36,419 bases of DNA from Bacillus sp. 123MFChir2 (GTDB taxonomy: Bacteria > Bacillota > Bacilli > Bacillales > Bacillaceae_G). A program made the translations under genes and the position numbers. How positions within the stretch are numbered: position 1 is the stretch's first letter; the number at the start of each line of letters is the position of its first letter. Shown piece by piece: positions 2,886-36,407 of this stretch. The notes below the pieces were generated by a model, which did not search any database, was not told the origin of the DNA, and worked only from the letters and a program-made list of their open reading frames with translations. Where the stretch lies: assembly GCF_000383235.1 (NCBI RefSeq), contig NZ_KB910964.1, positions 1 to 36,419 of the forward strand, given 5' to 3'.

Positions 2886-4291
2886 GATTTTGGAAAACGT
2901 ATGATAAACATTGTTCCTTTCCCTTGTTCACTCGTTACTTCAATTGTTCCATCGTGCAGTTTCACAAGTTCCTTTACAATTGATAATCCTAATCCGAATT
3001 CACCATAACTATTCGTTCTAGAAGCATCCGCTTTATAAAAGCGCGACCACACGGCAGCTACTTCTTCTTGCTTCATTCCGATTCCTGTATCTGCAATTTC
3101 AATCGTTACTGTTTGTCCTTCTTCTCTTCCTCGTAATCGAATCGTTCCGTTCTCTGTAAATTGCAGACTATTCTTTATGATGTTTAGTAAAATTTGCAGC
3201 AATCGGTCATAATCAGCGTAAACAAATAAACGAGCGGGGACATCGATTTCAATCTTATTTTCCTTTTCCTTTGCTTGTAGTTCTAACTGTTCACGAATGA
3301 CTTCAAATACTTCTTTTACGTCAATTTCTTCTTTTTGAAGTGTAATTTCATTTGAAAGAATTTTTTCATAGTCTAACGTTTCATGAACGAGGCGAATTAA
3401 TCGCTTCGTTTCTTGTTCCATCATTTCATAGCAGCGCTGCTTTTTCTCCTCTGGAATGAGGTCATTCTTCATTCCTTCTACTAAACCATTCATTGTCGTA
3501 AGCGGTGTTTTTAATTCATGGGAAACATCCGCAATAAATTGACGTTTTCGCTTTTCTAAACGCTCAATCTCTATCTGCGCTTTATGAAGCTGCTGCGCCA
3601 TATTGTTAAAATCGTTTCCGAGCAAACCAATTTCATCATATTGTCCAATAGGAATATGTACATCATACTGGCCTTTTGCGATCATTTCAGTTGCCCCGCG
3701 AAGACGTTGCACCCGTTTGACTAAAGAGCGTGAGAAAAAAATACTAACCACAAGTACAATTAGGAATGTAATTCCTGCCGCAATAAATAAATAACGATTT
3801 AATTCCGTAATGATTTCAAGTGTGTTGCGGATAGGAGCTGTTAACATCACACCGCCTTGCAGTTCACCATTTCTCATATATGGAAGCGCAACAATGGATA
3901 CAGGTTGTTCAAATCTATTTACGTCTCGTTTTATTTTCAATGTTTCACCATGTTGAATTTTCTTCCATTCTTCCTCGCTTAACAATGGATTTTTCTTTAC
4001 ATGAACTGGTGATTGCGTAATTTCTCCCTTTTCATTAAAGATGAAAAACTTCGTTTCACGTGCACGTAATAGATTAGAAAAATGTTTTAGTTTCACAACA
4101 TGAACATCCATTTCTTTTTTCTCAAGCTCATCAATAATTTTATTCCCATAAGAAGTAAGCTCGTCTACCTTTGTTTCATACGCAAGATTTTCAGCTAAAC
4201 TTAAAAACATCACACTTAATAAAATAAAGGCAACAAGAAAAACAAGAATGTAACTAAATAACAGCTGATAAAAATATTTAATCCTTTTCAC
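2882..4291 (-). CDS. Sensor histidine kinase (two transmembrane segments, HAMP domain)
   Basis: A 469-aa membrane sensor kinase. Transmembrane segments lie near residues 11-31 and 168-186 and enclose an extracytoplasmic sensor of about 135 residues. A HAMP domain follows (about 188-240), then a HisKA domain with FIADVSHELKTPLTT (phospho-acceptor His258) and an HATPase_c domain with the N box (LLNIIKNSL), DTGIGM and GLGLSIV. The start is a GTG overlapping the end of the response regulator gene by 14 nt, so the two are translationally coupled. Signal and targets are unknown. Known family behaviour is autophosphorylation and transfer to the partner regulator. Confidence 0.93.
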   Translation of the reverse strand: MKRIKYFYQLLFSYILVFLVAFILLSVMFLSLAENLAYETKVDELTSYGNKIIDELEKKEMDVHVVKLKHFSNLLRARETKFFIFNEKGEITQSPVHVKKNPLLSEEEWKKIQHGETLKIKRDVNRFEQPVSIVALPYMRNGELQGGVMLTAPIRNTLEIITELNRYLFIAAGITFLIVLVVSIFFSRSLVKRVQRLRGATEMIAKGQYDVHIPIGQYDEIGLLGNDFNNMAQQLHKAQIEIERLEKRKRQFIADVSHELKTPLTTMNGLVEGMKNDLIPEEKKQRCYEMMEQETKRLIRLVHETLDYEKILSNEITLQKEEIDVKEVFEVIREQLELQAKEKENKIEIDVPARLFVYADYDRLLQILLNIIKNSLQFTENGTIRLRGREEGQTVTIEIADTGIGMKQEEVAAVWSRFYKADASRTNSYGEFGLGLSIVKELVKLHDGTIEVTSEQGKGTMFIIRFPKS

Positions 4292-4964
4292 AGCCAGCTA
4301 CCACTTCGTCAAATTTATAACCAACGCCCCACACAGTTTGAATCCATATATGCGAATCCGTTCTAATTTTTTTACGAAGCCGTTTAATATGTACATCGAC
4401 CGTTCGCTCATCTCCGTAAAATTGATAGCCCCAAATGCGCTCTAAAAGCTGCTCCCTACGAAATACTTGGCGCGGATGTTTCGTAAAAAAGACGAGTAGT
4501 TCAAATTCTTTTGGCGTTAAATTATTCACTTTCTCACCGTCTAAAAATACTTCTCTCGTTTCTTCATTAATATGAAAATGACTCGTTTCATTTTTCACCT
4601 GTTTTTTTGCTAAACGACGGACAACTGCCTTCATCCGTGCAATTAATGTAAGTGGGCTAAATGGCTTCGTAACATAATCGTCTGCCCCAATTTCTAATCC
4701 AAGCACTTGATCCGCTTCACTATCTTTTGCGGTTAACATAATGATAGGAACGTCACTGCTTTCTCTTATTTTTTGACATAGTTTTATACCGTCCATCCCT
4801 GGAATCATCCAATCTATAATAAGCAAATCCCACTCTTTCTTTTGAAACAATGCATATGCTTCTAAACCATCTGCGACAAATGTTGCTTGAAAATTTTCTT
4901 TCATAAAAAACAATTCAAGCATAGAACACACACTTTCATTATCCTCAACAATTAATACATGCAT
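4278..4964 (-). CDS. OmpR-family response regulator
   Basis: A 228-aa regulator with a receiver domain (acidic pocket E7-D8, phospho-acceptor D51 in LLIIDWMIPG, conserved T/K further on) and a C-terminal winged-helix DNA-binding domain ending in TVWGVGYKF. I chose the ATG at 4964 because GGAGAAGGTGC sits just upstream and MHVLIVEDN is the canonical start of the fold. An upstream TTG at 5030 would add 22 residues with no receiver homology. It is the first gene of a two-gene operon with the kinase downstream. The regulon is unknown; the exported protein transcribed divergently at 5314 is a reasonable candidate target (inference). Confidence 0.93.
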   Translation of the reverse strand: MHVLIVEDNESVCSMLELFFMKENFQATFVADGLEAYALFQKKEWDLLIIDWMIPGMDGIKLCQKIRESSDVPIIMLTAKDSEADQVLGLEIGADDYVTKPFSPLTLIARMKAVVRRLAKKQVKNETSHFHINEETREVFLDGEKVNNLTPKEFELLVFFTKHPRQVFRREQLLERIWGYQFYGDERTVDVHIKRLRKKIRTDSHIWIQTVWGVGYKFDEVVAGCEKD

Positions 4965-5042
4965 CGCAGCACCTTCTCCATTCATTGAAATCTTTCTCTT
5001 CATTTTAAGGCTCTTATCATATAGAAACAACTCTCTACTTCT

Positions 5043-19564: not shown

Positions 19565-19605
19565 AACAATACTACCTCAATCTAAGCGATTGAGGTAGTA
19601 TTGTT
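19565..19605 (-). terminator. Very strong intercistronic hairpin between kdpC and kdpD
   Basis: AACAATACTACCTCAATC pairs perfectly over 18 bp (19565-19582 with 19588-19605) around a 5-nt loop. It starts in the kdpC stop codon and ends 16 nt before kdpD. On the minus strand it is followed only by TTTGG-like sequence, so it may be a partial terminator or an mRNA-stabilising/processing hairpin that lowers kdpD output. Confidence 0.75.
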
Positions 19606-20188
19606 ACATCATTTTTTGTAATTCTACATTTAACTTCAACACGTTGACGCGATCTTCACCGAACAATCCAAGTGCTTTTCCTTCTGTTTGTGATTCAATC
19701 AGCTTATCAATTTTTACTTTCGGAATATTCGTAATTTTAGAGATGCGATCTACTTGTACGTAAGCTGCTTGTGGGCTAATGTCTGGGTCTAACCCTGAAC
19801 CTGAATTCGTTACTAAATCCATCGGAACTTCCGTAACAGGCACTGCTGGATTTTCCTTCTTCCAATTGTCCACACTCTCTTCTACACGTTTTACTAAATC
19901 TGGATTAGACGGTGCATAGTTATTCGATCCCGATGCTTCTGCTTTATATTCTATACTAGAGACGCGTCCGTGGAAATAACGTGGATCTGTAAAATTTTGA
20001 CCAATTAATTTCGAACCAATAACTTCATTTTTGTCATTATAGATAAGGCTTCCGTCTGCATTATCTTTCATAAATGCTTGCGCAATTCCTGTAACTAAAA
20101 GTGGATAAATAAGCCCGCATATAACAAGAAATGTAAAGGTTACACGAATGACAGGTGAAAGTATCTTTTGTTTTTCAAACATTTTCAT
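19604..20188 (-). CDS. kdpC: K+-transporting ATPase subunit C
   Basis: 194 aa. One N-terminal transmembrane helix ([20 protein letters not shown]) is followed by the extracytoplasmic KdpC domain with the conserved segments [27 protein letters not shown] and [12 protein letters not shown]. KdpC stabilises the KdpFABC complex and supports ATP and K+ affinity. The length is normal. It sits 12 nt after kdpB. The ATG at 20188 is close to AAGGGGAA; the ATG two codons later has better spacing. Confidence 0.96.
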
Positions 20189-22313: not shown

Positions 22314-23981
22314 TCACTTCAATGTAAGAAATTCCGCAATTGGTCCTAACACTAACATCGGGAAGAACGTTAATGCCCCTACAATTACAATTGTTCCAAT
22401 GAAAATACCGCCAAATAAACCGTTATCTGTTCGGAATGTTCCGATTGTTTCTGGTACTACCGTTTTCTCTTTTAATGAAGCTGCTACAGCGAGCATTGTG
22501 ATTAGGCTAAAGTAACGTCCTAAAAACATTACGATACCAGTTGTAATGTTCCAAAACGCCGTATTGTCTCCTAAACCTTCAAAACCGGAACCGTTATTTG
22601 CTGCCGAAGAAGTATATTCATAGACAACTTGTGTCAAACCGTGAAAACCGGAGTTTGAAATAGCATCTGTTCCGAGATGAGTCGAAAGAGCCAATGCTGA
22701 AAACCCTAAAATAAGTAAAGGATGAAATAGTATTGTTACCGCAATTAATTTCATTTCCTTTCCTTCAATCTTCTTCCCTAAAAACTCTGGTGTACGTCCC
22801 ACCATTAATCCCGATATAAAGACCGCGATAATCGCGTACATAATAATATTGATAAATCCTGCACCGACCCCGCCGTATACTGTATTTAACATCATATTTA
22901 CAAGTGGTACGAGCCCTCCAATTGGTGTCAACGTATCATGCATGGTATCAACAGCACCTGTTTCTGCTGCGGTTGTTACTGTTGCGTATAGTGAAGAAAA
23001 TACGGTTCCAAAGCGAACTTCTTTTCCTTCTACACTGCCTTGAGTATGCTGCATTCCCATTTCATTTAACGCTGGGTTTCCATGTAATTCTGACGTTACA
23101 ATTGTTGTAAATCCCATTAAAAATACGATGAATAAAGAAACGAAAAGAACGCGTCCTTGTTTTTTATTCCCGACCATTCTTCCGTATGTAAATGGCAGGG
23201 CTGTTGGTAACAGCATCATAAGCATCATTTGTAAAATGTTACTGATTTGACCTGGGTTTTCAAATGGATGCGTTGAGTTTGCCCCGAAAAATCCTCCGCC
23301 GTTGTTTCCTAATTCTTTAATAGAAACGAAAGAAGCAACCGGACCACGTAATATACTTTGTTTCACGCCTTCAATTGTATGAGCTGTAACCGCTCCTTCT
23401 AACGTTTGCGGTACACCAAGCGCAACGAAGATCAATGCTGCTATAAATGCAATTGGAAGAAAAACTCTCGTTAAAGCACGTGTAAAATCTACGAAGAAAT
23501 TTCCAAGTTCTTTCCCTGCTAACCCTCTTATAAAAGCCATTACAATTGCTAATGTTGTTGCTGGTGCTGTAAACATTAAAAACGTAATTCCAATTAATTG
23601 TGACAAGTACGAAACACCATTCTCACCGCTGTAATGCTGTAAATTTGTATCTGCCATAAAACTAATTGCTGTATTAAAAGCGAGTGTAGGTTCCATTCCC
23701 TGAACATGAGCTGGATTTAGTAGCAATACACCTTGCAGGCGAAGTATAAAATAAACAACAATAATCATAAATCCATTAAGTGCAACTAATGATAATGCGT
23801 ATTGCTTCCAGCTCTGGTTATAAGGCTTCACACCCGAAATTTTAAAAATAATATTTTCAAAAGGTCCGAACACTTTATCCAATTTGCTATTCCCTTGAAA
23901 CGCCTTCTCTAAATAAATCCCGGTTGGCTTTGCAACAAGAACGAATAATAACATTGTGATCAAAACGGCAATCCAAATCAT
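22314..23981 (-). CDS. kdpA: K+-transporting ATPase subunit A (K+ channel-like subunit)
   Basis: A 555-aa membrane protein of the SKT superfamily with about ten transmembrane helices. Filter-region segments include [45 protein letters not shown] and [11 protein letters not shown], as in canonical KdpA. It binds and selects K+ at the outer face. Start ATG with AGGGGGAAAGG upstream. It lies 19 nt after kdpF. Length and motifs are normal for the family. Confidence 0.97.
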
Positions 23982-24000: not shown

Positions 24001-24081
24001 TTAAAACTTTTCTGGATTTAATAGCGCATAAACTAAGTAAACAGTAAGTAAACCAACAATAATGGATACTGCAATACTCAT
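24001..24081 (-). CDS. kdpF: K+-transporting ATPase subunit F
   Basis: 26 aa (MSIAVSIIVGLLTVYLVYAL then LNPEKF), a single transmembrane helix ending in the typical LxxPExF motif of KdpF. It stabilises the KdpABC complex. A longer reading upstream in the same frame has no ribosome binding site and no homology. Its ATG overlaps the stop of the preceding 34-codon ORF (ATGA), with GGAAGGGAAG inside that ORF serving as ribosome binding site. Confidence 0.9.
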   Translation of the reverse strand: MSIAVSIIVGLLTVYLVYALLNPEKF

Positions 24082-24182
24082 TGCTTCTTCCCTTCCTTCA
24101 CAACTTGATCCGACCATCTTGCAAGACCGATCATCGATCCAACTAACACAATTAAAATTGCTATCATAGCGATATCTAACAT
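24078..24182 (-). CDS. 34-aa single-pass membrane peptide upstream of kdpF
   Basis: The sequence reads MLDIAMIAILIVLVGSMIGL followed by ARWSDQVVKEGKKQ, then TGA. It has a good ribosome binding site (GAGGGATGAATC) and overlaps kdpF by the ATGA arrangement, so it is almost certainly translated as the first cistron of the kdp operon. One hydrophobic helix (residues 4-20) is followed by a basic cytosolic tail. Small unnamed membrane proteins preceding kdpF occur in other bacteria (memory, not verified). It may be an accessory subunit or a translational leader for kdpF. Confidence 0.72.
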   Translation of the reverse strand: MLDIAMIAILIVLVGSMIGLARWSDQVVKEGKKQ

Positions 24183-24225
24183 GATTCATCCCTCACTAAA
24201 TGTAAAATTTTACCATTAAGAGCAT

Positions 24226-24258
24226 AAAAAAGAACACTGAGGCTCTACTCAGTGTTCG
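24226..24258 (-). terminator. Terminator of the kdp c-di-AMP riboswitch (expression platform)
   Basis: On the minus strand GAACACTGAG and CTCAGTGTTC form a perfect 10-bp stem around a 6-nt loop, immediately followed by six T. It lies between the aptamer and the first kdp cistron. Confidence 0.92.
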
Positions 24259-24284
24259 AAAATGAACAACACAAAAGTAAACCT

Positions 24285-24425
24285 CCTCTCCAAACGCTTA
24301 CGAGGTTAGCTGTCGGATTCGGGCCTAAAGAGTAGCCCTACTTTCATCATGAAAGATTCACCCCAAGTGACAATGCACAAAATTGGTTCCCCCGCTCCAT
24401 TTCTGGACTCAGCGATATCAGGTTG
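24285..24425 (-). ncRNA. c-di-AMP riboswitch (ydaO/yuaA type) of the kdp operon
   Basis: On the minus strand the conserved blocks occur in order: CGCTGAG, GGGGGAACCAATTTTG, GTCACTTGGGGTGAATC, GTAGGGCTACTC, CCCGAATCCGACAGCTAACC and TCGTAAGCG. These are the signature of the ydaO motif, which turns genes off when c-di-AMP is high. A terminator follows at 24226-24258 and then the kdp genes. Known biology: c-di-AMP represses K+ uptake systems in Firmicutes, including riboswitch control of K+ importer genes. Confidence 0.95.
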
Positions 24426-24459
24426 TTTTTGGAAATTTTATGAACAATTTATGAATGTA

Positions 24460-24488
24460 AATATACTCCTCTATATTTTACTTGTAAA
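24460..24488 (-). promoter_or_regulatory. Sigma-A promoter of the kdp riboswitch transcript
   Basis: On the minus strand TTTACA (24483-24488), 17-bp spacer, TATATT (24460-24465). Transcription would start about 25-30 nt before the aptamer. Confidence 0.65.
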
Positions 24489-24634
24489 GAGCAAAAATAA
24501 CGAAAATATGAAAATATAAGACCTTTTAAACGCTTACATTCAAGATAATTACAACTTTATCATCTATTTTCTTTTATTTTCTTCCTTTTTCATTATGTAT
24601 ACGTTCTTTTGCAAATGAAAAAAGAAGATTATCT

Positions 24635-24795
24635 CTATAAATCAAATTTAATTTCCAGACATATAGGTCAAATACAGCATAACCTGCTCTTCTCCTTTTG
24701 TTTTACACCTCGCTCGTGGCATAAAAAGGCCCTGACCGCTTCTATGCACGGCCAGGACCTCTCGCACTCTCTAAAAAGAAAGGCGGTTTTAATTA
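24635..24795 (+). repeat. bcr-type dispersed repeat, copy 4
   Basis: ATAAATCAAATTTAATTTCCAGACATATAGGTC left end (in pieces), CCTTTTGTTTTACACCTCGC, CGTGGCATAAAAAGG, CCCTGACCGC...GGCCAGGACCTCTCGC and CTAAAAAGAAAGGCGGTTTT. The right inverted end is eroded. It lies between the two c-di-AMP riboswitch units. Confidence 0.75.
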
Positions 24796-24814
24796 ACCTT
24801 CTAATTCATCTAAA

Positions 24815-25051
24815 TCATAAAAAAGAGCGTAAATTACGCCCCCGAATATACACTTGCATCAATTCTGCATGTCGCTTCTCATATTCGATAATATCTTGTT
24901 CTAAATATAGACAGATATCTTCTGGCGGAAGAATCATATATGGTTTCGGAAAGAATGGATCACGTTCTGCTAATTCATATACTCGTTCTAACGAAAGCGC
25001 CCACCGTTTTGCTAACTCGCGGCACAGTAATACTTTCATCGCTTCTTTCAT
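24815..25051 (-). CDS. Small AlpA/excisionase-like helix-turn-helix protein, second gene of riboswitch operon
   Basis: 78 aa. The central part LCRELAKRWALSLERVYELA then DPFFPKPYMILPPEDICLYL and EQDIIEYEKRH resembles the AlpA/HTH_17 type of winged helix (helix, turn, recognition helix, 'FPKP' wing, closing helix). That suggests DNA binding, though no database check was done. The start follows GGAGGAATCGGGT. It lies 17 nt downstream of the RCK_N-like gene and is thus under the same c-di-AMP riboswitch. The 3' end encodes RNLRSFL through a terminator-like stem (GGGCGT/ACGCTC) plus six T. Confidence 0.8.
   Translation of the reverse strand: MKEAMKVLLCRELAKRWALSLERVYELAERDPFFPKPYMILPPEDICLYLEQDIIEYEKRHAELMQVYIRGRNLRSFL
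24816..24842 (-). terminator. Terminator inside the 3' end of the helix-turn-helix gene
   Basis: On the minus strand GGGCGT, loop AATTT, ACGCTC (one G-T pair), followed by TTTTTT and then the stop codon. Confidence 0.65.
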
Positions 25052-25068
25052 ACCCGATTCCTCCGCCC

Positions 25069-25470
25069 CTACTCTAAAGTCAAAAATGAAATATTATCGC
25101 AAGTTGTAAACACCACTAATTGAATGCCAATCGTTTCATAGAGGTGCTTTGGATATTGTTTATTTCGCGTGACAACTGTAATAGGTGCGGTAAAAGAAGA
25201 GCGTATACGTTTGGCGAAGAAGTTAATTGTGGATAACTCATCTCCTAGCAAAATCGCTTTTTTAACTGCTTTGCATATGTTCACAATCATGCTTGGGTCA
25301 TCTGGACAACAATATGTTTGCTGAAACCCATATACTTTCACTTCACTTGCCACATATTCATTCGCTGCAAAAATAACCATTTCACTTTGAAACGGTACTA
25401 AATCTTTTAAACTCTTTACTTTCGCAGCTTCTCCTACACAAATGAGCGTGTACTCTTTTTCCTCATCCAT
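25069..25470 (-). CDS. Orphan RCK_N/TrkA-N-like protein, first gene of c-di-AMP riboswitch operon
   Basis: 133 aa, cytosolic. The alternation of strands and helices resembles an RCK_N (TrkA-N) domain: YTLICVGEAAKV where the dinucleotide loop should be, MVIFAANEYVASEVKVYGF, QTYCCPDDPSMIVNICKAVKKA and then LLGDELSTINFFAKRI...APITVVTRNKQYPKHLYETI...VVF, which parallels 'ATGDDETNLL...KVIARVNNPEYAELFEKLGA'. The glycine-rich GxGxxG is not kept and no RCK_C follows. This is remote resemblance judged by eye. RCK proteins gate K+ transporters and some bind c-di-AMP, so the context fits. I chose ATG 25470, with AAGGAGG 9 nt upstream; an in-frame ATG at 25479 abuts that site. Confidence 0.75.
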   Translation of the reverse strand: MDEEKEYTLICVGEAAKVKSLKDLVPFQSEMVIFAANEYVASEVKVYGFQQTYCCPDDPSMIVNICKAVKKAILLGDELSTINFFAKRIRSSFTAPITVVTRNKQYPKHLYETIGIQLVVFTTCDNISFLTLE

Positions 25471-25489
25471 GCACTGCATCCTCCTTCAC

Positions 25490-25523
25490 ATAAAAGAATT
25501 TTTAAATATAAATCAAAATTCTC
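25490..25523 (-). terminator. Terminator of the second c-di-AMP riboswitch (expression platform)
   Basis: On the minus strand AGAATTTT pairs with AAAATTCT (25515-25522 with 25495-25502), followed by TTTTATG. It is weaker than the kdp one but is in the expected place before the ribosome binding site. Confidence 0.6.
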
Positions 25524-25572
25524 TCATGCTAGTCGGACTGATGAATTGATATATTCACTTGCACCATCCTCT

Positions 25573-25703
25573 CTCAACACGCTTACGGAGTTAGCTGTCG
25601 GATTCGGGCTTTGAGAGTAGCCCTACCTTCAAAAAGGATTCACCCCAAGTGACAATGCACAAAATTGGTTCCTCCGCTCCAAATTTTGGATTCAGCGTTC
25701 AAA
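25573..25703 (-). ncRNA. c-di-AMP riboswitch (ydaO/yuaA type) of the RCK_N-like/HTH operon
   Basis: On the minus strand: CGCTGAATCC, GGAGGAACCAATTTTG, GTCACTTGGGGTGAATCC, GTAGGGCTACTC, GCCCGAATCCGACAGCTAAC, TCCGTAAGCG. It is highly similar to the kdp aptamer about 1.3 kb downstream, so the pair probably arose by duplication or is kept similar by function. It controls the two-gene operon at 24815-25470. Confidence 0.95.
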
Positions 25704-25722
25704 AAAATAGATTCTGGCTGAT

Positions 25723-25751
25723 ATACTACTCCTAAATTTGGAAAAAGTAAA
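25723..25751 (-). promoter_or_regulatory. Candidate sigma-A promoter of the upstream c-di-AMP riboswitch transcript
   Basis: On the minus strand TTTACT (25746-25751), 17-bp spacer, TAGTAT (25723-25728). Confidence 0.5.
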
Positions 25752-25798: not shown

Positions 25799-26611
25799 TT
25801 ATACACGTACATTTCTACGTCCATACGCAAAATGATTCGTTGGTCCGTGACCGCTTCCAATGTTTAGCTCATCTTCAATTGCTATACTAGTAAAGCTCTT
25901 TGCTTCACGAACTGCGTCAGCAATTTCATAACCTTTCGCGAGTCCTGCTGTTACAGCTGCGGCAAACGTACAACCGCTTCCGTGTGTTTGGATCGACGCA
26001 ATCCGTTTGCTTCTATACTCTATAAACTCATTCCCATCAAACAGTAAGTCAATTACTTCGTTCCCTTGATACGCTGCATGTCCACCTTTCATCACAACAA
26101 ACTTCCCACCTAAATCATGCAGCATTTTCGCCGCTTCTTTACTGTCTTCAATCGTATGAATTTTCATTCCGGTTAATACTTCTGCTTCAGGAACATTTGG
26201 CGTAATGACCGTTGCAAGCGGTAGTAAATGTTCTTGTAATGCCGTAACAGCTTCCTGTTGTAATAACGGCGCTCCGCCTTTTGCAATCATAACAGGATCT
26301 AGTACAATATTATTCCATGAAAATGATTTAATATTTTCAGCTACGATTTTTATAATCTCACTACTAAACAACATCCCAAGTTTCACTGCATCTGGCATTA
26401 AATCAGCACCGATAGAATGTAACTGTTTTTCAATCCCCTCTACAGGAACTGGATACACTCCTTGTACACCAAGCGTATTTTGGGCCGTAATTGCTGTAAT
26501 AGCTGTCATTCCGTACACACCGAGCTCTTGAAATGTTTTTAAATCTGCTTGAATTCCCGCACCGCCGCCGCTATCAGAGCCAGCAATCGTTAATGCTTTA
26601 TTCACCCTCAT
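25799..26611 (-). CDS. thiD: Hydroxymethylpyrimidine/phosphomethylpyrimidine kinase
   Basis: 270 aa, ribokinase-like fold. The N-terminal TIAGSDSGGGAGIQADLKTF (substrate site), VLDPVMIAKGG, ITPNVPEAEVLTG and the C-terminal THGSGCTFAAAV anion hole with its catalytic Cys are intact. It phosphorylates HMP and HMP-P to HMP-PP, one of the two halves of thiamine. It is the last gene of the operon. The start at 26611 (MRVNKALTIAG) is used; GTG two codons later is possible. The longer reading to 26632 overlaps thiF. Confidence 0.95.
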   Translation of the reverse strand: MRVNKALTIAGSDSGGGAGIQADLKTFQELGVYGMTAITAITAQNTLGVQGVYPVPVEGIEKQLHSIGADLMPDAVKLGMLFSSEIIKIVAENIKSFSWNNIVLDPVMIAKGGAPLLQQEAVTALQEHLLPLATVITPNVPEAEVLTGMKIHTIEDSKEAAKMLHDLGGKFVVMKGGHAAYQGNEVIDLLFDGNEFIEYRSKRIASIQTHGSGCTFAAAVTAGLAKGYEIADAVREAKSFTSIAIEDELNIGSGHGPTNHFAYGRRNVRV

Positions 26612-35837: not shown

Positions 35838-35909
35838 TGACCCGTACGGGATTCGAACCCGTGTTACCGCCGTGAAAGGGCGGTGTCTTAACCACTTGAC
35901 CAACGGGCC
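35838..35909 (-). tRNA. tRNA-Glu (anticodon TTC)
   Basis: Acceptor GGCCCGT/ACGGGTC, anticodon arm CCGCC-CTTTCAC-GGCGG, T-arm GTTCGAATC. The CCA end is not encoded. It is the last tRNA of the operon. Confidence 0.96.
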
Positions 35910-35910
35910 A

Positions 35911-35985
35911 TGGCTCCGCAGGTAGGACTCGAACCTACGACCGATCGGTTAACAGCCGATAGCTCTACCACTGAGCTACTGCGGA
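35911..35985 (-). tRNA. tRNA-Asn (anticodon GTT)
   Basis: Acceptor TCCGCAG/CTGCGGA, anticodon arm ATCGG-CTGTTAA-CCGAT, T-loop TTCGAGTC, encoded CCA. Confidence 0.96.
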
Positions 35986-35988
35986 ATA

Positions 35989-36065
<77 letters not shown>

Positions 36066-36075
36066 ATATTTTTTA

Positions 36076-36146
36076 CAGGGGCAGTAGGAATCGAACCCAC
36101 ACCGGAGGTTTTGGAGACCTCTGTTCTACCGTTAAACTATGCCCCT
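36076..36146 (-). tRNA. tRNA-Trp (anticodon CCA)
   Basis: Acceptor AGGGGCA/TGCCCCT with discriminator G, anticodon arm GAGGT-CTCCAAA-ACCTC, T-loop TTCGATTC. The CCA end is not encoded. Confidence 0.95.
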
Positions 36147-36149
36147 AAG

Positions 36150-36225
<76 letters not shown>

Positions 36226-36245
36226 TAGTTTTTTACAAAAAAAAA

Positions 36246-36321
<76 letters not shown>

Positions 36322-36331
36322 TTTATATAAA

Positions 36332-36407
36332 TGGCGGTCCCGACCGGGGTCGAACCGGCGATCTCCTGCGTGACAGGCAGGCATGTTAACCACTACACCA
36401 CGGGACC
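36332..36407 (-). tRNA. tRNA-Asp (anticodon GTC)
   Basis: Acceptor GGTCCCG/CGGGACC with discriminator G, anticodon arm CCTGC-CTGTCAC-GCAGG, T-loop TTCGACCC, encoded CCA. Confidence 0.96.

What the first reader, a model, noticed from the sequence alone, without database searches (positions are those of the whole stretch)
24001..25751. Two consecutive c-di-AMP riboswitch units control kdp and an uncharacterised gene pair
Seen: two full ydaO-type aptamers in the same direction, about 1.3 kb apart, each with its own promoter-like sequence and terminator. The distal one leads a two-gene operon (25470-24815), the proximal one leads the kdp genes. Known: c-di-AMP represses K+ uptake genes through this riboswitch. 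Inference: the two units form one K+ homeostasis module, and the first operon encodes new components that are off when c-di-AMP (and K+) is high.
Basis: partly seen in the sequence, partly recalled or inferred. Interest (0 to 1): 0.8.

Follow-up and report, generated by a model that had tools for sequence, protein, structure and literature searches.

The report
Twin c-di-AMP switches, potassium gene module
Two RNA switches that sense the signal molecule c-di-AMP sit one after the other: one controls the known Kdp potassium pump, the other leads an undescribed gene pair whose first protein looks like a stripped-down relative of potassium-channel regulators and is found beside such switches or pump genes in many related bacteria.

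Summary
Two full RF00379 aptamers lie on the minus strand at 25707-25564 (113.2 bits) and 24424-24281 (113.3 bits). The proximal unit is already published: it fits the B. thuringiensis BMB171 kdp riboswitch (PMC6488665, passages). The distal unit is the new part. Its first gene (25479-25069, 136 aa) has no Pfam or NCBIfam match. Profile and fold comparison make it a divergent, stand-alone RCK_N-like Rossmann domain without the GxGxxG loop and without RCK_C. In 150 genomes of the order of Ectobacillus, 8 of 8 strong relatives lie beside kdpA. In 149 genomes of the order of Paenibacillus, 52 of 111 lie just upstream of kdpA, and 47 of the other 59 follow a c-di-AMP aptamer. The whole order aptamer-gene1-gene2-aptamer-kdp recurs in L114. 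Gene2 (25051-24815) is a small HTH-type protein. The distal leader lacks a canonical terminator. Best reading: a c-di-AMP-repressed accessory regulator of K+ uptake; its biochemical role is inferred.

The parts
25723..25751 (-). possible distal promoter TTTACT-17-TAGTAT
   Evidence: read by eye; 8 of 12 positions, below the threshold
25564..25707 (-). distal c-di-AMP riboswitch aptamer
   Evidence: RF00379, 113.2 bits, E 1.9e-26
25488..25529 (-). A-U-rich hairpin, possible expression platform of the distal leader
   Evidence: 15 bp, -13.9 kcal/mol, z -4.77; lower stem pairs at probability 0.99-1.0 in the whole leader; not a canonical terminator
25069..25479 (-). gene1, stand-alone RCK_N-like domain protein, 136 aa
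   Evidence: no Pfam or NCBIfam match
24815..25051 (-). gene2, small HTH-type DNA-binding protein, 78 aa
   Evidence: PHROG 4745 'DNA binding protein' at 1.7e-4, relative L001 at 8.1e-6; distant relatives with a readable HTH
24460..24488 (-). kdp promoter TTTACA-17-TATATT
   Evidence: 10 of 12; the published start site, placed by the paper's numbering, falls at 24451
24281..24424 (-). proximal (kdp) c-di-AMP riboswitch aptamer
   Evidence: RF00379, 113.3 bits, E 1.7e-26
24225..24257 (-). kdp leader terminator
   Evidence: 10-bp stem and T run
24078..24182 (-). 34-codon hydrophobic ORF before kdpF
   Evidence: no Pfam or NCBIfam match; relatives in 74 of 80 kdpA loci
24001..24081 (-). kdpF
   Evidence: PF09604 and TIGR02115 above cut-off
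22314..23981 (-). kdpA
   Evidence: PF03814, 753.9 bits
20201..22303 (-). kdpB
   Evidence: E1-E2 ATPase and hydrolase domains; name by position between kdpA and kdpC
19604..20188 (-). kdpC
   Evidence: PF02669
18397..19548 (-). short kdpD (KdpD and Usp domains only)
   Evidence: NF038185 KdpD_non_kinase, 641.9 bits against cut-off 550

Best explanation
The window holds a c-di-AMP-controlled K+ module in two units. When K+ is plentiful, c-di-AMP is high and the leaders shut their operons (in print for kdp; inferred for the distal unit). When K+ falls, c-di-AMP falls and both are expressed: KdpFABC with a short KdpD, and in parallel gene1 and gene2. Gene1 is a stand-alone domain of RCK_N-like fold that lacks the nucleotide-binding glycine loop and the RCK_C domain (shown by sequence and model). 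It most likely acts as an accessory protein of K+ uptake that touches a transporter assembly from the cytosol: Kdp where it sits with kdp, Ktr where no kdp is present (inferred). Without RCK_C its c-di-AMP control would act on its synthesis only (inferred). Gene2 is a small HTH-type DNA-binding protein that probably adjusts transcription in the module (inferred).
For: Both aptamers score alike. Gene1 profile matches KtrA, GsuK and KtrC chains; hhalign to a KtrA-type protein 81%; confident model (pLDDT 89.7, pTM 0.84); Foldseek finds RCK domains among its best hits. 8 of 8 strong relatives in 150 genomes of the order of G001 lie beside kdpA. 52 of 111 relatives in 149 genomes of the order of G011 lie -27 to 941 bp from kdpA. 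47 of the 59 others have a c-di-AMP aptamer just upstream: 11 of 12 by Rfam, 36 of 47 by a core pattern with 0 hits in 1,980,503 reversed bases; 11 of 15 clusters at 70% identity. Same two-unit order in L114. Gene2.
Against: No experiment on gene1 or gene2. The distal leader has no canonical terminator. Per single domain the PDB profile hits are weak (5but 0.96 per copy, 4gvl 0.014), and designed proteins score nearly as well; Foldseek also lists alcohol dehydrogenases and a designed Rossmann protein among the best hits, KtrA only at rank 42. 10 of 19 near full-length kdpA genomes in the first order and 55 of 107 kdpA copies in the second have no gene1 nearby. 12 of 59 unlinked copies have no aptamer. 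Gene1 is frame-broken in the L001 assembly. Gene2 is narrow in range.
Confidence: 0.55

Rival explanations
1. Gene1 works on Ktr, not on Kdp: it joins or caps KtrA/KtrC rings through RCK_N contacts and changes Ktr gating when c-di-AMP is low; its place beside kdp only reflects shared regulation.
For: The nearest solved relatives include KtrA and KtrC. Five of the 59 unlinked copies lie in genomes without a near full-length kdpA hit. Unlinked copies keep the aptamer.
Against: All 8 strong copies in the order of G001 lie at kdp. In L022 gene1 sits before kdp with no aptamer near and a full KdpD histidine kinase upstream, so the link to kdp does not need shared riboswitch control there.
Confidence: 0.25
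2. Gene1 and gene2 form a transcription regulator that stands in for KdpDE: an RCK_N-like sensor with an HTH partner acting on kdp or other K+ genes.
For: KdpD here lacks the kinase part. Gene2 looks like a DNA-binding protein and is next to gene1 in G001 and G020.
Against: Most genomes with gene1 have no gene2: 11 of 397 genomes match gene2, only G001, G020 and a remnant in G018 among them at kdp. The kdp leader already gives c-di-AMP control (PMC6488665).
Confidence: 0.12
3. The distal unit is a decaying copy of the proximal leader with genes of no present use.
For: The two aptamers are 82% identical with a long identical stretch. No canonical distal terminator. Relatives show decay: frame break of gene1 in L001, gene2 remnant in G018.
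Against: The distal aptamer keeps the full consensus; both ORFs are intact in the window; in L114 the two aptamers are only 79% identical, so not a fresh copy there; gene1 is kept in 94 of the 299 sampled genomes of the two orders (8 strong, 86).
Confidence: 0.06

Closest known systems
c-di-AMP riboswitch of kdpFABC, B. thuringiensis BMB171 (PMC6488665)
   Same: Proximal unit: 144-nt aptamer, promoter and start site, terminator, kdpF position, short KdpD.
   Different: The passages seen do not mention a second aptamer or the gene pair upstream.
KtrA/KtrC, RCK proteins of Ktr
   Same: RCK_N-like fold, weak profile match; B. subtilis ktrAB also has a c-di-AMP riboswitch (PMC6488665, passage).
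   Different: No GxGxxG, no RCK_C, 136 aa against 218 aa for the KtrA-type protein of L101.
Short KdpD of Deinococcus geothermalis (PMC11018627)
   Same: The window's KdpD also has only KdpD and Usp domains.
   Different: Activity and c-di-AMP control not tested for this protein.
Tandem c-di-AMP riboswitches (PMC9481103, passages)
   Same: Two aptamers of one class in one region; doublets upstream of kdp occur in relatives.
   Different: In the window the two aptamers lead separate operons 1.28 kb apart, not one leader.

Membership tests
RF00379 c-di-AMP riboswitch (both units) | covariance score above the curated cut-off over the whole model | tested here: met
   113.2 and 113.3 bits against 38, positions 1-134 of 134
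RF00379 c-di-AMP riboswitch (distal unit) | expression platform | tested here: inconclusive
   A-U hairpin before the ribosome-binding site, no canonical terminator
RF00379 c-di-AMP riboswitch (distal unit) | binds c-di-AMP and changes expression | not testable with these tools
   needs in-line probing and reporters
KtrA/KtrC-type RCK protein (gene1) | RCK_N Rossmann fold | tested here: met
   model and Foldseek, with other Rossmann folds also among the hits
KtrA/KtrC-type RCK protein (gene1) | GxGxxG nucleotide-binding loop | tested here: not met
   window has VGEAAK after the first strand; consensus of A1 has no such motif; motif itself recalled
KtrA/KtrC-type RCK protein (gene1) | C-terminal RCK_C domain | tested here: not met
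   the 136-aa protein ends with the RCK_N-like domain
Pfam TrkA_N (gene1) | match to PF02254 | tested here: not met
   no match for the window protein at E 1; 2 of 18 family members match, best E 0.0041
KdpD non-kinase (NF038185) | score above curated cut-off | tested here: met
   641.9 bits against 550
HTH DNA-binding protein (gene2) | helix-turn-helix | tested here: inconclusive
   PHROG 4745 at 1.7e-4, but model pLDDT 68.7, Foldseek best E 0.96, no Pfam match

The most novel reading that the evidence does not exclude
Gene1 is an RCK-type cytosolic subunit or gate of the KdpFABC pump. KdpA is held to belong to one superfamily with KtrB/TrkH (recalled), which work with RCK rings; these bacteria may have kept or regained an RCK-like partner for Kdp, whose supply is set by a c-di-AMP riboswitch.
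Probability: 0.22. Interest if true: 0.85.

Novelty: new variant of a known kind. Interest (0 to 1): 0.55.

Why it matters
KdpFABC is described as working without an RCK subunit (recalled), and c-di-AMP control of K+ uptake is a central theme in Firmicutes. A conserved protein family that curated libraries do not name, and that mostly stands beside kdpA or behind a c-di-AMP riboswitch in the 94 sampled genomes that carry it, points to a missing component of K+ homeostasis and makes it directly testable: remove it and measure growth and K+ uptake at low K+.

Tried and rejected
Close-relative search for gene1 in genome contigs: 24 stretches matched a pattern, none confirmed. None of the 80 kdpA loci is titled as a B. 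cereus-group species, so conservation within that group was not tested. Plasmid collection: no match. The Fisher test of gene1 against aptamer over the 80 kdpA loci (p 4e-6) is not used: the clostridial loci lack both, so kinship can explain it. I first took the 780-800 aa KdpD-like ORFs of Paenibacillus for kinases that would contradict the published mutual exclusion of KdpDE and riboswitch; the two scanned (L006, L020) hold two KdpD domains and a Usp domain and no kinase domain at E 0.1, so the idea was dropped. Foldseek for gene2 gave nothing at E 0.001. Ten paper searches listed no paper on a gene1-like protein by title or abstract start; two papers on ydaO gene contexts are not held, so a mention there is not excluded. 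Rows dropped: eight low-scoring kdpA rows (E 5e-6 to 7.6e-4) were left out; all 111 gene1 rows were used. Of the 21 kdpA rows I do not count G079 (partial) and G081 (26 bits).
Full report
Observation. Covariance scoring finds two full c-di-AMP aptamers on the minus strand, 25707-25564 and 24424-24281, with nearly equal scores (113.2 and 113.3 bits against 38). Behind the distal one are ORFs 25479-25069 (136 aa, gene1) and 25051-24815 (78 aa, gene2); behind the proximal one a 34-codon ORF (24182-24078), kdpF, kdpA, kdpB, kdpC and a short kdpD. thiD ends upstream at 25799 with a terminator-like site at 25786-25756, so the distal unit looks independent of the thi genes.

The proximal unit is known. 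The passages of Wang et al. 2019 that I saw (PMC6488665) describe in B. thuringiensis BMB171 an aptamer at +28 to +171, a terminator to +227, a start site 370 bp before kdpF, a truncated KdpD and no KdpE. The window's aptamer is 144 nt; if +28 is 24424, the start site is 24451, nine bases after the end of the -10 box (24460), and kdpF starts 370 bp on, at 24081. The ORF of the window's KdpD is 383 aa, the paper says 365. A B. anthracis paper reports a riboswitch upstream of kdp identical to the B. thuringiensis one (PMC11302148, passages). The passages seen in either paper do not mention the distal unit. No tool result names the window's species; it fits the B. cereus group.

The distal leader is less clear than the finding says. 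The scan found no terminator between aptamer and gene1 and no promoter at 9 of 12 on that strand. A 15-bp hairpin of mostly A-U pairs stands before the ribosome-binding site (25536-25484: -13.9 kcal/mol, z -4.77; the stretch 25563-25495, cut inside the 3' arm, z 0.28). In the fold of the whole leader, computed without ligand or pseudoknots, its lower pairs have probability 0.99-1.0 and the upper ones 0.62-0.92. It could be a weak terminator or a translational device. In L114 a hairpin followed by T runs lies before gene1, but the fold of that stretch is no better than shuffles (z -0.30).

Gene1. Alone it matches no Pfam or NCBIfam family at E 1. An iterated profile over the ORFs of the 80 kdpA loci (130 loci encoded a relative, the tool keeps 80) found relatives in 21 loci: 19 upstream of kdpA, and two (L004, L028) behind the short kdpD; in L031 only a 50-residue piece is open. 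The 17 other rows of alignment A1 are 12-28% identical to the window protein. The profile matches PDB chains of KtrA (5but, 8e-5 for a chain with two copies, 0.96 per copy), GsuK (4gvl, 0.0018; 0.014 for the domain), KtrC (0.011) and YuaA (0.11), but also two designed proteins (3.4e-4, 0.0029). hhalign to the KtrA-type protein of L101 gives 81%. The AlphaFold2 model is confident (pLDDT 89.7, pTM 0.84). Foldseek lists GsuK, MthK, a TM1088 ring, a KefB TrkA domain and TrkA within its first 17 hits, together with a designed Rossmann protein and alcohol dehydrogenases; KtrA of KtrAB comes at rank 42 (TM 0.61). The GxGxxG loop is absent and the protein ends where RCK_C would begin. So the fold is RCK_N-like, but two defining features of KtrA and the Pfam match are not met.

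Distribution, searched without regard to kdp. The two samples are the order of G001 (the genome of L001, Ectobacillus) and the order of G011 (that of L022, Paenibacillus terrae); I take these to be Bacillales and Paenibacillales (names recalled, not told by the tool). In the first, 42 of 150 genomes match: 8 strongly (E below 1e-15), all 8 beside kdpA (seven 247-887 bp upstream of it, G014 about 3.9 kb downstream), G130 weakly (1.5e-7) with its match ending 319 bp before kdpA, and 33 only weakly, in frames of 220-256 aa but for one of 315; the one I read (L101) is a KtrA-type protein. 19 of the 150 have a near full-length kdpA, so 10 of 19 lack gene1. In the second, 86 of 149 genomes match, 111 matches: 52 lie -27 to 941 bp from kdpA on its strand, 59 elsewhere; 52 of 107 kdpA copies have gene1, 55 do not. 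In a phylum-wide sample 6 of 299 genomes match at 1e-10, all six already seen in the two orders.

Link to the riboswitch. All 59 copies away from kdpA were fetched with upstream DNA, three of them (L125, L140, L147) cut short by a contig end. Twelve were scanned with Rfam: 11 have an aptamer just upstream on the same strand, L106 has none. The other 47 were scanned with a core pattern allowing 3 mismatches, which gave 0 hits in 1,980,503 reversed bases: 36 have it, 68-473 nt before the match. The pattern missed an Rfam hit in 2 of 18 loci where both were run on the gene1 strand or beside it (L116 and the + strand aptamer of L117), so 36 is a lower bound. Total 47 of 59. Many of these genomes are close kin: at 70% identity the 59 proteins form 15 clusters, 11 with and 4 without the aptamer; 10 of the 12 negatives are one cluster at 50%. 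For scale, the 16 of 17 genomes with hits carry 2 to 10 aptamers each. Of the 8 strong copies in the order of G001, 6 have an aptamer within about 0.5 kb upstream (G008; G020, G110, G113, G159, G170); G001 has it only between gene2 and kdp; in G014 gene1 lies behind kdp. Of the 21 kdpA loci with gene1, 16 have the core upstream of kdpA; Rfam adds L031, and L002 with an aptamer 1.2 kb before gene1; L012, L022 and L023 have none near. L022 has a full KdpD histidine kinase upstream, so there gene1 stays with kdp without the switch.

The same architecture elsewhere. L114 (G020) reads aptamer 3661-3798, gene1, gene2, aptamer 4843-4986, small ORF, kdpF, kdpA. L043 (Gottfriedia) has two aptamers before gene1 and one between gene1 and kdp. 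L001 (Ectobacillus) has short kdpD, gene1 (frame-broken in this assembly), gene2, aptamer, kdp.

Gene2. Two homologues share 58% and 50% identity with it. Pfam gives nothing. PHROG 4745 'DNA binding protein' matches L001 at 8.1e-6, the window at 1.7e-4 and L114 at 0.026. In 397 genomes of the order of G001, 11 match; G001, G020 and a remnant in G018 are next to kdp; three of the eight others were read and carry what I read as a clear HTH. The model is weak (pLDDT 68.7) but has two helices in HTH position.

Mechanism. Shown here: two aptamers, gene content, fold class of gene1, linkage. In print: c-di-AMP represses kdp through the proximal leader and falls at low K+ (PMC6488665, abstract and passages); the short KdpD of D. 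geothermalis is a kinase controlled by c-di-AMP that inhibits the pump (PMC11018627, abstract and passages). Inferred: the distal unit is repressed likewise; gene1 is an accessory regulator of K+ uptake whose c-di-AMP control acts on synthesis; gene2 adjusts transcription.

Novelty. The kdp riboswitch is known, and so are tandem c-di-AMP riboswitches (77 doublets, PMC9481103, passages). New, as far as my ten paper searches and the Pfam and NCBIfam scans go, is the gene1 family: RCK_N-like, not curated, and tied to c-di-AMP riboswitches, to kdp or to both.

Noticed in passing
window 24182-24078; 74 of 80 kdpA loci: A hydrophobic ORF of about 29-44 codons stands right before kdpF and is conserved across Bacilli and Clostridia kdp loci, with no Pfam or NCBIfam match for the window copy. 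Relatives were found with a permissive iterated profile (E 0.01), so the count is approximate. It may be the orfZ described long ago in Clostridium acetobutylicum (recalled).
   Followed up: partly
L004:7355-8029, L028:7624-8277, L011:5102-5845 (all - strand): Stand-alone proteins similar to the Usp part of KdpD, each with a c-di-AMP aptamer core just upstream on the same strand; the L004 one is below the Pfam Usp cut-off.
   Followed up: partly
L006:14604-16940, L020:14311-16686: KdpD-like proteins with two KdpD domains and no histidine-kinase domain, in kdp loci that have c-di-AMP aptamers.
   Followed up: partly
L102:3598-4056, L106:4218-4670 (- strand), L103:5946-6419 (+ strand): Proteins of 151-158 aa without a Pfam match that lie divergent to gene1 and look alike by eye; in L102 an aptamer also stands before this gene.
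   Followed up: no
L017:8586-9071, L019:8541-9029: A second, divergent gene1 paralogue stands before the aptamer in Peribacillus and Metabacillus.
   Followed up: no
window 30871-30763 and 30702-30602: Two TPP riboswitches in tandem on the - strand before the thi genes.
   Followed up: no
window 35838-36407: Cluster of seven tRNA genes on the - strand.
   Followed up: no
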